56,902 nucleotides of DNA, from IMG/VR virus record IMGVR_UViG_3300021090_000023, positions 1 to 56,902 of that record; one strand, given 5' to 3'. The notes beneath the pieces were generated by a model. It was not told the DNA's origin. It searched no databases and saw only the letters and a program-made list of their open reading frames with translations. Shown one piece after another: positions 12,024 through 22,585 of the stretch. The position numbers and the translations under genes were made by a program. Position 1 is the stretch's first letter. The number at the start of each line of letters is the position of its first letter. This stretch comes from a virus.

Positions 12024-12296
12024 ATGGTAACGAGGCCGCTGAGGGGAGGAGATAGGGAAGACTGGATCAAGTGGTTCGAGACGTTCGGCGCGGGAAGGTT
12101 CTACGACAGCTTCGTCGCGAGCGCGCAGGACGCGCGTGGGACGTGCCGGCACTGCGGAGAGTACATCTACCTCGACATCGTCGAGGGCGGCGGGGTCCCG
12201 GACTGGCGCACCGCCGACGGCGACTATGGATGCGGCGATTCACCAGATACATGCGACGAGGGGACCGGCTCGCACATTCCACTCAAGAGGAGGTAG
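12024..12296 (+). CDS. Conserved phage protein with Cys/His cluster (90 aa)
   Basis: ATG 12024 is chosen because GGAGGTGA lies five bases upstream; ATG 12009 would place the site inside the gene. The core CRHCGEYIYLDIVEGGG, then DYGCGDSPD and DTCDEG, is a conserved-looking phage module with four or five Cys that may bind zinc. Function unknown. Confidence 0.7.
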   Translation: MVTRPLRGGDREDWIKWFETFGAGRFYDSFVASAQDARGTCRHCGEYIYLDIVEGGGVPDWRTADGDYGCGDSPDTCDEGTGSHIPLKRR

Positions 12297-12301
12297 TCTC
12301 C

Positions 12302-13876
12302 ATGACGAAGTTCATCGAGAAGTTCCTAGAGCACAGGTGCGCGGGGTTCCCGATCCTCTATGTGCAGACGCACGAGGAGCAGCGCCTGATCGCCGAGTTC
12401 GCAGAGCTCTTCGGCGCGGCGGACTGGCAGGACCCGATCTACCACTGGTCGAGCGTGATAGGCATCCAGCAGATCGGGAGCGACGCGCCGCCGGAGCACG
12501 AGACGAACGCCGTCGAGGTCCTGAAGCGGGTCGTCACCCTCCCGGGAGGGAGCGTCGTCGTCTTCAAGGACGCCTCGATCCCAACCCTCGCCCGGAACCT
12601 CAGGGACATGCTCGGGCACCTCGAGGGCACCGGGAAGACGCTCGTCTTCGTGAGCCCGGCGATCTCCGTCCCCCTGGAGCTGGAGAAGGACGTCACCCTC
12701 CTCGCGTATCCGCTCCCGACGAGGGAGCAGCTCAGGGCGATCCTCGGGAAGATCGTCCTGGAGCAGGAGGGAGCGCACAGGGTCACGATAGACATTAAGG
12801 AGGGGGCGAGGGTCGCGGACGCGGCCTCGGGCCTCACGGCGAACGAGGCGAAGAACACCTTCTCGCTGGCGATCGCCCGGCACGGGAGGCTCGACGCGGC
12901 GGCGGTCAGGACGGTCCTCGCGGAGAAGGCCGGGGCGCTGAAGAAGTCGCGGCTGCTCGAGTGGATCGAGTCCGACCAGCCCCTGACGAAGCTCGGCGGG
13001 TTCGGGGCCGTCAAGGCGTACCTCGACGTCATCGCTCCGATATTCTGGAAGCCCGACGCCGCCCTGAAGTTCGGCCTCAGGCCGGAGGACTTCCCGCGGT
13101 CCATCCTCTTCACCGGACCGCCGGGGACGGGGAAGTCGATGGCGGCGCAGCTCATCGCGAACCACCTCGGCATCGGGTGCGTCAGGACCGACTTCGGGAT
13201 GATCTTCTCGGCGGGCGGCGGGCGCGTCGGCGCGGCGGAGGAGAACATCGTCCGGAGGAACGACCTGGTCGAGGCGATGGAACCCGTCGAGGACTGGTGG
13301 GATGAAGCGGAGAAGGGCCTGACCGGCGCGAGCGGGGCGAGCGTCCAGAACCCATGGGAGGCGCGGGTCGCCGGGACGCTCCTCACGTGGTTCGAGATGC
13401 ACCGGGCGCAGGTCCTCGTCGTCGCGACGGTCAACAAGCAGGAGATCCTCGCCCCGGAGATGCTCTCGAGGTTCCAGAAGGTCTACTTCGTGGACCTCCC
13501 GACGCTCACGGAGCGGGTAGAGATCTTCCGGAGTCAGATCGGCGACCGCCCGGTAGTCAAGGGCTGCCTCGGGGATGGGGAGCTGAAGCGGCTCGCCGAG
13601 CTCGCCGAGAAATTCTCGGGGCGGGAGATCAGGAACGCCGTCCAGCAGGGGTGCAGGCTCGCCTTCTCCAGGAAGGCGAAGGCCGCGGGGTACGACGACA
13701 TCTTCGATGGGATCAAGTCGATCACACCGGTGGCGAAGATCAGGAAGGGGGAGATCGAGCGGCTCCAGGACTGGGCGACGGAGAACAACATCGAGTGGGC
13801 GTCGAGCGCGCCCGACAACCCGCACGCGGTGCAGACGGCGAGGCCGCGCGCCATCAGGCTACCCAACAACAAGTAG
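12302..13876 (+). CDS. Ycf46-like AAA ATPase
   Basis: A 524-residue protein: an N-terminal non-catalytic domain (about 1-230) like that of Ycf46 proteins, then an AAA module with Walker A GPPGTGKS (about 271-278), Walker B-like WWDEAEKG (about 331-338), sensor-1 ATVN (about 377-380) and the LSRFQ arginine-finger region. Ycf46 homologues in cyanobacteria, plastids and phages are of unknown function, but often lie near DUF1257 (Ycf35-like) and DUF2997 genes; candidates for both occur here at 17187 and 20158. ATG 12302 follows AGAGGAGG. Confidence 0.85.
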   Translation: MTKFIEKFLEHRCAGFPILYVQTHEEQRLIAEFAELFGAADWQDPIYHWSSVIGIQQIGSDAPPEHETNAVEVLKRVVTLPGGSVVVFKDASIPTLARNLRDMLGHLEGTGKTLVFVSPAISVPLELEKDVTLLAYPLPTREQLRAILGKIVLEQEGAHRVTIDIKEGARVADAASGLTANEAKNTFSLAIARHGRLDAAAVRTVLAEKAGALKKSRLLEWIESDQPLTKLGGFGAVKAYLDVIAPIFWKPDAALKFGLRPEDFPRSILFTGPPGTGKSMAAQLIANHLGIGCVRTDFGMIFSAGGGRVGAAEENIVRRNDLVEAMEPVEDWWDEAEKGLTGASGASVQNPWEARVAGTLLTWFEMHRAQVLVVATVNKQEILAPEMLSRFQKVYFVDLPTLTERVEIFRSQIGDRPVVKGCLGDGELKRLAELAEKFSGREIRNAVQQGCRLAFSRKAKAAGYDDIFDGIKSITPVAKIRKGEIERLQDWATENNIEWASSAPDNPHAVQTARPRAIRLPNNK

Positions 13877-15875: not shown

Positions 15876-16697
15876 GGAGGAGCCAACGTCGCCGAGAGTA
15901 GCAAACCGGATGATCGAGTCAGGTGGCGAGAAGGTTCCAAGTCGAAAGAGCGAGTCAGAGTTTCAGAAGGTAGCATGTCGAGAGAGCGAGTCAGATCGCC
16001 TCCAGGGGCCAGATCCCACGAGCGAGCCGGGATCAGAGAGAGCAACAAATCCCAAGAGCGAGTCACATGAGAAGAGGGAACCAACGCAGAAGAGCGAGCC
16101 GTCGTCCGAGAGCGCGCCATACACGATCAGCGAGTCAAGTACTCCGAGGGTGCCAATGAGGCAGAGCGAGTCAGGTGCAGAGAGAGTAGCACACTACTTG
16201 AGCGAGTCAGGTCGCAAGAACGTAGCAATAGCACAGAGCGAGCCACTTGGTCATAAGGTATCAGAGTTCGAGAGCGAGTCATGCGAGGGTAATGTACCAC
16301 AATAGGAGAGCGAGTCAGCGTCCGGGAGAGTAACCAAAGAGGGGAGCGAGGCAAAGTCGAGGAGGGTACCACACCGGAGAAGAGCGAGTCAGTTCATAGG
16401 AAAGTATCAGAGTTGGGGAGCGAGTCACGTGAGGAGAGGGCATCAATCAAATGGAGCGAGTCACCGAGGCAGAGGGTTCCAAACTAGCGGAGCGAGCCAT
16501 TAGGTGTAATAGTAACAACTACCAGGAGCGAGCCACGTTAGGAGAGGGCGTCAAACCAAGTAAGCGGGCCAGTAACGGGGAGTGCACCAATCATGGAGAG
16601 CGAGCCATGGCGCGCGAGAGTACCGAGAGATGGGAGCGAGCCAGAACGACAGAGGGTAGCAATATTCGTGAGCGCGCAGTAAACCTAGAGAAGAGGA
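15876..16697 (+). repeat. Repeat array 1: about 23 units of a 36-bp (2 x 18-bp) repeat
   Basis: The stretch alternates box A GAGCGAG(T/C)CA, eight variable bases, box B GAGRGTANCA, and eight variable bases. The period is 36 bp with boxes exactly 18 bp apart; one unit is 38 bp. The spacers differ in every unit. No frame is open across the array and no ribosome-site-led gene is seen in it. The boxes are all in the same orientation. Conserved boxes with unrelated spacers imply selection on the boxes, as in arrays of protein-binding sites or repeated RNA motifs. Function unknown. Confidence 0.9.
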
Positions 16698-16710
16698 GGG
16701 TAAGGAGGCA

Positions 16711-17238
16711 GTGCCTTATGGCGTAAAGATCTTACCGAGGACAGATGATACGGCTAAGTTGAGACGTACAATTAGGAGGATAAAAGTAGTTACAGATAGA
16801 GGATGCTGGATCTTACCTCCTCGATTATCTACCCAGCAAGGCCGTCCGATGCTAACAGTAAAAGGATATAAGGTAAGACTAGCACGTGCAGTCTACGAGA
16901 TATGGTATGGTCCATTAGGGAAGAAATTTGCTCTTCACTCATGCGATAATGAGCGATGCTTTAACCCAGTCCACCTATGGAAAGGTACCCAGAAGCAAAA
17001 TATAAAGGACGCCGCTAAGAAAGGGAGGATGTATCGAGGACCTCATCCATGGGCCCCTAGAGGTAAAGATCATTTTGCATATAAAAACCCCAAGAAATGG
17101 AAAGTACACCTAAAGAAGATGATACTCGGACAAGAAGGGAGGCGACCTACTGGTAGTAATCACTGGAGTAAGCGTCATCCTATAAGATGGAAAGAGATGT
17201 TACTCGAACGAGAAAGGAAAAGAAAATCAGTCATATAG
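16711..17238 (+). CDS. HNH homing-type endonuclease
   Basis: GTG 16711 follows AAGGAGG. The core LHSCDNERCFNPVHLW (about 75-90) followed by GTQKQNIKDAAKKGR is the HNH_3 type found in free-standing homing endonucleases. The gene is clearly richer in A/T than its neighbours, a sign of recent arrival. Its last 52 bases overlap the DUF1257-like gene. The base composition changes abruptly near 17240, at the end of this gene. It probably cuts DNA at or near this locus in phages lacking the insertion. Confidence 0.85.
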   Translation: MPYGVKILPRTDDTAKLRRTIRRIKVVTDRGCWILPPRLSTQQGRPMLTVKGYKVRLARAVYEIWYGPLGKKFALHSCDNERCFNPVHLWKGTQKQNIKDAAKKGRMYRGPHPWAPRGKDHFAYKNPKKWKVHLKKMILGQEGRRPTGSNHWSKRHPIRWKEMLLERERKRKSVI

Positions 17239-17669
17239 TCAGGGTGGAGTGCAAGGTCGAGGACGAGGAGCTGGTCGCCCGCGCGGCGGAGCGGCTCGGC
17301 CTCGCGGTCGAGCGGAACGCCGTCCCCCGCTACTGGGGGAGCGCCTACGGAGGCGGGGAGAGCGAGACCTGCGACCTGGTCGTGAAGCTCCCCGGGAAGT
17401 ACGACCTCGGGGTCAAGCGGGGGGAGGACGGGACGTACCGGTGGGTCTGCGACACCGAGCTGCTCGAGGGGGCCTACGGGGCGGACGACCCCGGGCGGAA
17501 GCTCCTGGGGGAGCACGCGGAGCACCTCATGACCGCCTACGGCTGCGCCGCCGTCGAGCGCGACCTCCTCCAGGGGGCGGCGTATCAGACCTCGGTAGGG
17601 GCGGACGGGACGGTGTACTACGACGTCGATGAGAGTGAGCTCAACCGGATCGGGTATCAGAGGGACTAG
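17187..17669 (+). CDS. DUF1257-like (Ycf35-type) protein with altered start
   Basis: Residues 14 onward (ISHIVRVECKVED...AAERLGL) match the usual DUF1257 opening MSHIVxI...VRAACERLGL, but ATC (17226-17228) stands where ATG would be expected. The frame is open back to ATG 17187 inside the HNH gene, which adds 13 residues. So the HNH insertion appears to have replaced the original start. The rest contains DLVVKLPG and WVCDTELLEGAYG as in the family. DUF1257 proteins often occur with Ycf46-type AAA ATPases; function unknown. Confidence 0.7.
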   Translation: MERDVTRTRKEKKISHIVRVECKVEDEELVARAAERLGLAVERNAVPRYWGSAYGGGESETCDLVVKLPGKYDLGVKRGEDGTYRWVCDTELLEGAYGADDPGRKLLGEHAEHLMTAYGCAAVERDLLQGAAYQTSVGADGTVYYDVDESELNRIGYQRD

Positions 17670-17671
17670 GC

Positions 17672-17884
17672 GTGCACTTTACGTTCGTCGTCGAGGTGGA
17701 GGTCGAGCGCGCGCACGGGAAGTTCGCGACCCGAGAGGAGATAGCGGTGCAGATTCAGGAGGCGCTCGAGGGGGCGGACCCGGGGCAGTACGACGCGGAG
17801 AACGAGGGGGAGTACGGGACCACGTCGTGGGACGTCAGAGATCACTCGGTACCCAAAACCAAACAGAGGAGGAAGAGGACATGA
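17672..17884 (+). CDS. Conserved small phage protein (70 aa)
   Basis: GTG 17672, two bases after the DUF1257-like gene. The pattern FVVEVEVERAHGKFATREEI...QIQEALEGADPG recurs in small proteins encoded next to DUF1257 in other phages, as far as I recall. Acidic middle, basic tail. Function unknown. Confidence 0.65.
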   Translation: MHFTFVVEVEVERAHGKFATREEIAVQIQEALEGADPGQYDAENEGEYGTTSWDVRDHSVPKTKQRRKRT

Positions 17885-19176
17885 GAAGGGGTGGCATCGC
17901 GAGGCAGGACGTCGAGGACCTGGAGGAGCTCTCTGGGGTGGCGTGGGCGAAGCTCTCGAAGGACCTGAAGACGGCGGCCGACACGCTCACGGTCGAGCAG
18001 GTCAGGTACCTCGTCGATACGTTCTATCAGGTGCAGCAGTTCCGGATCGAGTCGGCGGGGCAGGAGCGGGCGTCGCGGGCGGCGGGGGAGCCGACCGACT
18101 TCGTGACGTGGATCTCGCGGTCCATGAAGACCATGGAGGGCGCGATCCGGACCGCGCTCGACCGCTACACGGACACGCGGGCGGAGGGACGGTGGGCGAA
18201 GTCCATCGTCGGGATCGGGCCGGTCCTCTCGGCGGGGCTCCTGGCGCACATCGACGTCGAGCAGGCGCACACCGCGGGGGCGATCTGGCGCTTCGCCGGG
18301 ATCGACCCGACCGTGCGCTGGATCGGCAAGGAGGAGGCGAAGGCGCTCGTGAAGGCGGGCTGGGAGAAGTCCAAGTCGGCGGAGGAGAACGCCCGGGCGC
18401 TGGCGCTCCGGCTCGGGCGGAGGCCGGAGTACCTCATCCGGGACGCCACGCCGAGGCCGACGGTGCCGGTGGATAGGTCGGCGGACATCGTCTGGATCGT
18501 CCAGAATCAGTGGATTTCAGGTCAGACGTTCGAGCAGAACGTCGGGACGCTCCTCGGGCGCTTCGTGGGCGAGGAGGAGAAGCTCGCCGCCGCAGCGAAG
18601 CTGATCATGGAGCACGCGTCCGACTGGACGTGGGACCCGAACCTCGACCCGGAGGGGAACGGGCGGTCGATGGCGAACCTCGTCACGCTCAGGGACCTCC
18701 CGGTCCAGAAGCCGATGACGGCGGCGACGGTGGAGAAGGCGCTCTCGAAGCGGCCGTGGAACGCGCGGCTGAAGGTGCTCTGCTACAAGATCGGGGAGTC
18801 GTTCGTCAAGCAGCAGAACCACGCGGACGACGTCTACGGCAAGGTCTTCGTCGCCCGGAGGGCGCTGGAGGTCGAGCGGAACCGGGGCGGGCTCTTCGCG
18901 GATCAGGCGGCGGCGGCGCTCGCGGCGAAGAACTACAGCCGGGAGACCAGGGCCAAGGCGGCGTACGAGAGCGGGAGGCTGCCGGACGCCCACATCCACG
19001 CGCGGGCGCGGCGCTACGCCGTCAAGATCTTCCTCTCGCACTTTCAGCACGTCGCCTACGAGGTCCGCTACGGCGCGCCCCCGCCGCGGCCGTTCGTCAT
19101 CGAGCACCTCGGGCACACGGAGTACGTCAGGCCGCCGAACTGGCCGATGCCCTCGGCGGAGGGGAGGGTCGCGTAG
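17881..19176 (+). CDS. IS110 C-domain-like helix-hairpin-helix protein (431 aa)
   Basis: ATG 17881 overlaps the previous stop. Residues 80-140 (GRWAKSIVGIGPVLSAGLLAHID, broken here only by description) and the following IWRFAGIDP segment match the helix-hairpin-helix region of IS110-family transposases. The N-terminal DEDD nuclease domain of those transposases is absent, so this is not an intact transposase. The later KRPWNARLKVLCYKIGESF and PPPRPFVIEHLGH segments match a conserved phage protein often annotated as transposase. TAG 19174-19176 lies inside the first box A of repeat array 2. Confidence 0.75.
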   Translation: MRRGGIARQDVEDLEELSGVAWAKLSKDLKTAADTLTVEQVRYLVDTFYQVQQFRIESAGQERASRAAGEPTDFVTWISRSMKTMEGAIRTALDRYTDTRAEGRWAKSIVGIGPVLSAGLLAHIDVEQAHTAGAIWRFAGIDPTVRWIGKEEAKALVKAGWEKSKSAEENARALALRLGRRPEYLIRDATPRPTVPVDRSADIVWIVQNQWISGQTFEQNVGTLLGRFVGEEEKLAAAAKLIMEHASDWTWDPNLDPEGNGRSMANLVTLRDLPVQKPMTAATVEKALSKRPWNARLKVLCYKIGESFVKQQNHADDVYGKVFVARRALEVERNRGGLFADQAAAALAAKNYSRETRAKAAYESGRLPDAHIHARARRYAVKIFLSHFQHVAYEVRYGAPPPRPFVIEHLGHTEYVRPPNWPMPSAEGRVA

Positions 19177-19945
19177 TCAGGTTTTAGGAGCGTATCAAGT
19201 ACAGCGAGCGAGTCAAAGTACGAGAAGGTAACAGCGAAACTGATCGAGACAAAAGCAGAGAGGGCATCAATACGCGAGAGCGAGTCATTCATGAGGAGAG
19301 TATCAAACTCTATGAGCGAGTCGAGCGTCCAAAGAGTACCAAGGCTGCTGAGCGAGTCATTGTTGAAGAAAGTAGCAACGTAGATGAGCGAGTCATCTTT
19401 GTTGAGAGTACCATAGGGAGAGAGCGAGTCACAGATCCGGAAAGTATAATAGAGGGCGAGCGAGTCATACCCCAAGAGCGAGTCACAGCACACGAGGGCA
19501 TCATCGAGAGGGGAGCGAGTCAGACAAAAAGCAGGTATCATTGTCCGTGAGCGAGTCAGACGAAGGAAGGGTGCCATGTACCAGGAGCGAGTCAGAATCC
19601 GAGAGAGTACCAATAAAGTAGAGCGAGTCAGATCACGTGATAGTACCAAAGAGATCGAGCGAGCCACTTCGGGAGATAATAACATAAACGCGGAGCGAGT
19701 CAGAACACCAGACAGTTACATGAACAGCGAGCGAGTCAGAACATGAGAGGGTAGCAATACTGACGAGCGAGTCACACGTCCGAGAGCGTAACAGAATACG
19801 TGAGCGAGTCATAGTGAGCGAGAGTAGCATAGATATAGAGCGAGTCAAGCAATGCAAGAGTTTCATGGCCGTGGAGCGAGCCGTATCCAATGAGAGCACC
19901 AAGAAGATCGAGCGAGCCATATCACGTAAGAGTACCAACTCGACG
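19170..19945 (+). repeat. Repeat array 2: about 21 units of the same 36-bp (2 x 18-bp) repeat
   Basis: Same alternation as array 1: GAGCGAGTCA, eight bases, GAGAGTACCA-like box, eight bases. One unit (about 19459-19476) has lost its B half and is exactly 18 bp long, which supports an 18-bp building block. Two units are 37 bp. The first box A contains the stop codon of the preceding gene. No + strand frame is open for long. The array ends at a GC hairpin (19951-19964). Confidence 0.9.
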
Positions 19946-19950
19946 GAGCG

Positions 19951-19964
19951 GCCCCCGAAGGGGC
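19951..19964 (+). terminator. GC hairpin closing repeat array 2
   Basis: GCCCC-CGAA-GGGGC, a five-base-pair stem with a four-base loop directly after the last repeat unit. No T tract follows, so termination is possible but unproven. Confidence 0.4.
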
Positions 19965-20157: not shown

Positions 20158-20346
20158 ATGAGCCGGACGGTGCGGATAGCAGTGGCGAGGGGCGGGGCGG
20201 TGACGGTGAAGGCGGAGGGCTTCAGGGGCGAGGGCTGTCAGCCCCTCGTCGAGGAGCTCTCGGCGCGGCTGAAGGGGACGGCGAAGAGCACGGAGCACAC
20301 GGCGGAGTTCTACGAGCAGGCAGACGTACAGGAGCAGAGGCAGTGA
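20158..20346 (+). CDS. DUF2997-like protein (62 aa)
   Basis: ATG 20158 behind GAGCGAGGCGAGAG. The segment VTVKAEGFRGEGCQPLVEEL then KSTEHTAEFYEQ matches the DUF2997 pattern (a VEGFKGxSC core followed by a helix and a YYE tail). DUF2997 genes commonly sit next to DUF1257 and Ycf46-like AAA genes; here they are separated by the repeat-flanked block. Function unknown. Confidence 0.7.
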   Translation: MSRTVRIAVARGGAVTVKAEGFRGEGCQPLVEELSARLKGTAKSTEHTAEFYEQADVQEQRQ

Positions 20347-22511: not shown

Positions 22512-22585
22512 GCGGGGTCGTCTAGTGGGAGGACACGGGCCTGGTACCAGGCCCGAGACCCTGGGTTCGATTCCCAGGCCCCGTC
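22512..22585 (+). tRNA. tRNA-like gene with abnormal anticodon arm
   Basis: The T arm CTGGG-TTCGATT-CCCAG (22561-22577) is canonical, the D arm GTCT-AGTGGGA-GGAC is good, and the acceptor strands around GCGGGG and CCCCGT pair. The anticodon arm is CGGGC-(10 bases)-GCCCG instead of a 7-base loop; the ten bases CTGGTACCAG are themselves self-complementary. Read from the 5' side the anticodon would be GGT (Thr), from the 3' side ACC (Gly codon). CCA is not encoded. A tRNA or tRNA mimic, identity unresolved. Confidence 0.7.

What the first reader, a model, noticed from the sequence alone, without database searches (positions are those of the whole stretch)
15876..19945. Two long arrays of a conserved-box, variable-spacer 18/36-bp repeat
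Seen: about 44 units in two blocks (15876-16697 and 19170-19945). Each unit is GAGCGAGTCA, 8 variable bases, GAGAGTACCA-like, 8 variable bases, in one orientation. Spacers differ from unit to unit while the boxes stay fixed, so the array is not a young duplication; the boxes look selected. No single frame is open across either array and no cas genes are near. Inference: arrayed binding sites (a partition or packaging site, a regulator sponge, a loading platform for the AAA/HhH proteins) or a long repeated RNA. I know of no described phage element of this form.
Basis: partly seen in the sequence, partly recalled or inferred. Interest (0 to 1): 0.88.

Follow-up and report, generated by a model that had tools for sequence, protein, structure and literature searches.

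The report
Phage TIGR-Tas guide RNA arrays
The two repeat blocks are long stores of paired 8-letter guide sequences flanking the gene of their guide-RNA-binding partner protein, i.e. a phage copy of the recently described TIGR-Tas RNA-guided DNA-targeting systems, whose natural targets and way of gaining new guides are still unknown.

Summary
Two same-strand arrays (15876-16679 and 19170-19949) hold 43 full 36-bp units plus one 18-bp half unit: edge GAGCGAGTCA, 8-nt spacer, loop GAGAGTACCA, 8-nt spacer. They are not an undescribed element. They match the dual-repeat TIGR arrays of TIGR-Tas (PMC12045711). The HhH-like gene between them (17881-19176) is a Tas protein without a nuclease domain (TasA-type): phmmer finds TasR 9mty (1e-15) and TasH 21kl (1e-7), and Foldseek of a good AlphaFold model puts ten TasH/TasR chains on top. 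At least 117 IMG/VR stretches carry the same repeats; where a Tas homologue is in reach it lies on the array's strand in 95 of 96 loci. Searching from Tas instead, 64 of 80 loci carry these repeats and about 10 more a 35-37-bp array. Proposed mechanism: tigRNAs guide a TasA dimer to bind and block, not cut, target DNA. Targets were not found: 1783 spacer pairs show no excess in 2.07 Mb of viral DNA. Extras: one phage locus identical to relatives except for a wholly replaced spacer, spacers turning over faster than flanks, and an enlarged insertion in this Tas. New member of a known kind.

The parts
15876..16679 (+). TIGR array 1: 22 units (edge 10 / spacer A 8 / loop 10 / spacer B 8), first and last edge degenerate
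16711..17238 (+). stand-alone HNH endonuclease ORF (homing-type), 43% G+C in a 63% G+C phage; lies between array 1 and tas; probably an inserted mobile gene rather than part of the system
   Evidence: not conserved at relatives
17881..19176 (+). tas gene (TasA-type, 431 aa, Nop domain without HNH or RuvC); enlarged insertion at residues ~150-289
   Evidence: start codon inferred from alignment and overlap with the preceding ORF
19170..19949 (+). TIGR array 2: 21 full units and one 18-bp half unit; begins on the tas stop codon, ends in a 3'-truncated edge
19951..19964 (+). short GCCCC-CGAA-GGGGC hairpin just after the last truncated edge, possible end of the array transcript (no U run)
   Evidence: no intrinsic terminator by consensus

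Best explanation
This is a phage-encoded TIGR-Tas system of the TasA type (Tas without a nuclease domain) with two dual-repeat TIGR arrays. Inferred mechanism: the arrays are transcribed with tas on the + strand; a host RNase together with Tas cuts the transcript inside each edge repeat into 36-nt tigRNAs; box-C/D-like ends shared by edge and loop repeats (GAG...YCA / GAG...CCA) hold each tigRNA in a Tas dimer; the two 8-nt spacers pair with opposite strands of adjacent 8-bp stretches of a DNA target. Because this Tas lacks a nuclease, the likely outcome is binding, bending and blocking of target DNA (other mobile elements or host genes) rather than cutting. Shown here: array anatomy, Tas identity and fold, linkage of the two across many viruses. 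Inferred: transcription, processing, target binding, outcome. The confidence given is for the identity as TIGR-Tas; for 'block without cutting' it is about 0.6.
For: Array grammar equals the published one, including 8+8 spacers as in SpTIGR, a truncated first edge and a 3'-truncated last edge. Tas: phmmer to TasR 9mty 1.1e-15 and TasH 21kl 1e-7; AlphaFold model pLDDT 81, pTM 0.75; Foldseek ranks 1-10 are all TasH/TasR-tigRNA complexes. Array-first scan: at least 117 stretches with the same repeats, 1892 parsed units, spacers mostly 8/8; Tas on the same strand in 95 of 96 loci where a homologue is found, median downstream gap 44.5 bp. Tas-first scan: 64 of 80 loci have these repeats and about 10 of the other 16 have a 35-37-bp array beside tas. 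Neighbouring genes are otherwise not shared, so array plus tas is the unit.
Against: No target found: 1783 unique spacer pairs in the published geometry show 10 exact and 326 one-mismatch sites in 2.07 Mb of array-masked viral DNA, against 8.9 and 301.6 for pairs shuffled within locus. No RNA data. No canonical intrinsic terminator after the arrays. Array 1 is 1.2 kb from tas, farther than in relatives.
Confidence: 0.95

Rival explanations
1. Arrayed protein-binding sites on DNA (partition, packaging, replication or regulator-titration site), with the boxes as half-sites and meaningless spacers.
For: Fixed boxes at regular 18-bp steps in one orientation could be protein sites. The paper notes TasA loci occasionally in operons with ParB-like genes.
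Against: Arrays sit on the coding strand of tas in 95 of 96 loci, right behind or before it, in viruses that share no other genes at the locus. Proteins matched by fold are tigRNA-binding. Spacer replacement in one step with boxes untouched makes less sense for inert spacers.
Confidence: 0.03
2. The arrays are remains of an IS110-type transposon and its RNA, the protein being a transposase.
For: Pfam Transposase_20 (2.1e-5) and PHROG 'transposase' labels.
Against: No N-terminal DEDD nuclease domain found; IS621/ISCro4 structures score far behind TasH/TasR (E > 1 against 1.6e-4 to 3e-3; phmmer 0.015 and 0.034). IS110 bridge RNAs are single units, not arrays.
Confidence: 0.01
3. TIGR-Tas in which the neighbouring stand-alone HNH protein acts in trans as the nuclease, giving a split TasH.
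For: HNH ORF 16711-17238 lies between array 1 and tas; TasH carries a fused HNH.
Against: Low G+C (43% against 70% for tas), similarity to phage homing-type HNH families, and only one weak match among the array loci: looks like a recent mobile insertion.
Confidence: 0.07

Closest known systems
SpTIGR / TasH of Salicola phage CGphi29 (PMC12045711); TasH structures in PDB 21kl, 9w04
   Same: Phage-borne; 36-nt unit, 16 nt of spacer in all (8+8); Tas fold (TasH is Foldseek rank 1)
   Different: TasH carries an N-terminal HNH nuclease; here Tas is nuclease-free and a homing-type HNH ORF lies apart
FpTIGR / TasA of Flavonifractor plautii (PMC12045711)
   Same: Solo Nop-domain effector with dual-repeat array
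   Different: 9-nt spacers there; the paper units most usual, here 43 in two arrays; enlarged Tas insertion here
TaTasR (PDB 9mty)
   Same: Sequence and fold match; box-C/D-like ends shared by both repeats
   Different: TasR has RuvC and UG/CCA boxes; here GAG...YCA boxes and no nuclease
IS110 transposases with bridge RNA
   Same: Distantly shared Nop/RNA-binding domain (Pfam Transposase_20)
   Different: No DEDD domain, no single bridge RNA, array instead

Membership tests
TIGR-Tas (dual-repeat) | two alternating 8-12-nt repeats interspaced by about 9-nt (8-12) spacers, ~36-bp unit | tested here: met
TIGR-Tas (dual-repeat) | array next to a Nop-domain Tas gene, upstream and/or downstream | tested here: met
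TIGR-Tas (dual-repeat) | box C/D-like ends shared between edge and loop repeats | tested here: met
   both start GAG and end in CA with C at position 9
TIGR-Tas (dual-repeat) | 5'-truncated first edge, 3'-truncated last edge | tested here: met
TIGR-Tas (dual-repeat) | rho-independent terminator after the array | tested here: inconclusive
   GCCCC-CGAA-GGGGC hairpin without U run after array 2; none by consensus
TIGR-Tas (dual-repeat) | array processed into 36-nt tigRNAs bound by Tas | not testable with these tools
   needs RNA sequencing
TIGR-Tas (dual-repeat) | spacers A and B pair with opposite strands of a natural target | tested here: inconclusive
   no excess of targets in 2.07 Mb of viral DNA; host DNA not available
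TasH / TasR subtype | HNH or RuvC domain fused N-terminally to Tas | tested here: not met
   the Nop part begins near residue 25; no nuclease domain by Pfam, PHROGs or fold
CRISPR-Cas | cas genes and 25-36-nt repeats with spacers of like size | tested here: not met
   repeats 10 nt, spacers 8 nt; no cas-like hits among the window proteins searched
IS110 transposase | N-terminal DEDD domain plus single bridge RNA | tested here: not met

The most novel reading that the evidence does not exclude
TIGR spacers are replaced singly and whole, by a dedicated or repeat-mediated exchange that spares the 10-bp repeats. Loci L012, L043 and L103 differ from L110 in spacer B of the second unit (AAGTAGAG to TGGACACG, 6 of 8 bases), with no other change over 12.2 kb of non-array DNA in the longest comparison (L173/L176, the same contigs as L012/L110). 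That would be a first view of how TIGR arrays renew their guides.
Probability: 0.15. Interest if true: 0.85.

Novelty: new member of a known kind. Interest (0 to 1): 0.5.

Why it matters
It turns an unexplained phage repeat into a readable guide list: 43 guide pairs of one phage. Together with well over a hundred sister loci it gives material for the two open questions that the discoverers state, what TIGR systems target and how arrays gain spacers. The near-identical phages with one swapped spacer are a concrete lead on the second.

Tried and rejected
(1) Spacer targets: A + gap 0-2 + rc(B), searched in 0.93 Mb and 2.07 Mb of array-masked viral DNA, against three other geometries and shuffled pairs: no excess, no self-targeting. 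(2) Host: the scan of genome contigs found the repeats only on small contigs binned with Acidobacteria and Gemmatimonadetes MAGs; too weak to name a host, so no host target search. (3) Claim that spacers are under purifying selection because they are unchanged in pairs whose flanks differ: rejected, the flank differences lie in blocks. (4) Coding reading: all frames have 4-14 stops. (5) Rfam: no family. (6) Search with the window Tas alone found nothing in viral contigs or by tblastn in annotated phages; the alignment was needed. (7) A second, narrower array pattern gave only loci already held.

Full report
Observation. Both blocks are on the + strand with a 36-bp unit: edge GAGCGAGTCA (also GAGCGAGCCA), 8 variable bases, loop GAGAGTACCA-like, 8 variable bases. 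Array 1 has 22 units (15876-16679), array 2 has 21 full units plus one 18-bp half unit (19170-19949). Edge boxes at no more than one mismatch: 41 in the arrays, 3 elsewhere on the same strand, 4 on the other strand, mean 1.1 in shuffles. No frame is open across either array.

What it is. [quoted passage not shown] The protein between the arrays (17881-19176, 431 aa) hits Pfam Transposase_20 at 2.1e-5, and by sequence the solved TasR (9mty, 1.1e-15) and TasH (21kl, 1e-7). Its AlphaFold model (pLDDT 81, pTM 0.75) has ten TasH/TasR chains as the ten best PDB matches. It has no HNH or RuvC part, so it is of the TasA type. Array 2 begins on the stop codon of tas.

Relatives. Where a Tas homologue lies within reach it is on the array's strand in 95 of 96 loci, median distance to a downstream array 44.5 bp (this count includes loci). 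The reverse scan, starting from the Tas alignment, gave 80 loci, of which 64 carry the same repeats; among the other 16 about ten show a 35-37-bp periodic array beside tas; in the two read by eye (L158, L188) the boxes differ in sequence. Some contigs occur in both sets. The window's other genes have almost no counterpart in the array-first loci, so tas plus arrays appears to travel as a module.

Peculiarities of this copy. Forty-three units is more than the 5-15 that the paper calls most usual, though relatives here reach 48. Array 1 is 1.2 kb away from tas, against mostly 15-110 bp in relatives; a low-G+C HNH homing-type gene (43% against 63%) and two small ORFs, one DUF1257-like, lie between. 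The Tas protein has an insertion at residues ~150-289 that about 98% of the array-first relatives lack at its full length; other Tas proteins have shorter versions of it.

How it works. Following the experiments in PMC12045711: transcription, processing into 36-nt tigRNAs needing Tas, a Tas dimer holding one tigRNA, spacers A and B pairing with opposite strands. From the 8-nt 3' overhangs reported there I derived that the top strand of a target reads A then rc(B); that derivation is mine. Without a nuclease, blocking by binding and bending is the likely outcome (suggested in the paper). All of this is inference for the present phage.

Targets. In 2.07 Mb of array-masked viral DNA 1783 unique pairs have 10 exact and 326 one-mismatch sites; within-locus shuffles give 8.9 and 301.6. 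So these viruses do not detectably target the sampled stretches of each other or of themselves. Spacers average 49% G+C against 58% for their loci, with a rank correlation of 0.58.

How arrays change. Contigs L012, L043 and L103 have AAGTAGAG as spacer B of the second unit; L110 has TGGACACG in its place, while no other base differs over the rest of the array and 12,238 bases of non-array DNA (L173/L176). A scan for this unit with any spacer B found just these four contigs. In L089/L113, L048/L097 and L228/L231 spacers differ at 42-75% of aligned positions, repeats at 2-6%, flanks at 2-5%. Turnover by whole spacers or units is therefore fast. Assembly of reads from mixed arrays could mimic the single swap; the reads were not available. 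Apparent spacer conservation in other pairs was dismissed because their flank differences are clustered.

Verdict. The value lies in the guide list, the sister loci and the spacer-swap lead.

Noticed in passing
L110 (second unit) against L012, L043, L103: Single whole-spacer replacement (AAGTAGAG to TGGACACG) in otherwise identical loci
   Followed up: partly
window 16711-17238: Low-G+C HNH homing-type endonuclease ORF lying between array 1 and tas
   Followed up: partly
L217 10001-11902: Tas ORF with a long intein-like insertion ahead of the GIGPV motif
   Followed up: no
window 12071-13876, 17187-17669, 20158-20346: AAA ATPase, DUF1257-like and DUF2997 genes on both sides of the TIGR locus; possibly a cluster that the TIGR module split
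   Followed up: no
window 22512-22585: ARAGORN tRNA-like gene with a four-base anticodon (gtac)
   Followed up: no
L142, L155, L156, L157: Much more distant Tas proteins (E about 1e-6 to 1e-8 to the window's) next to arrays with GAGCGAGTCA-type edges: the repeats look more conserved than the protein
   Followed up: no
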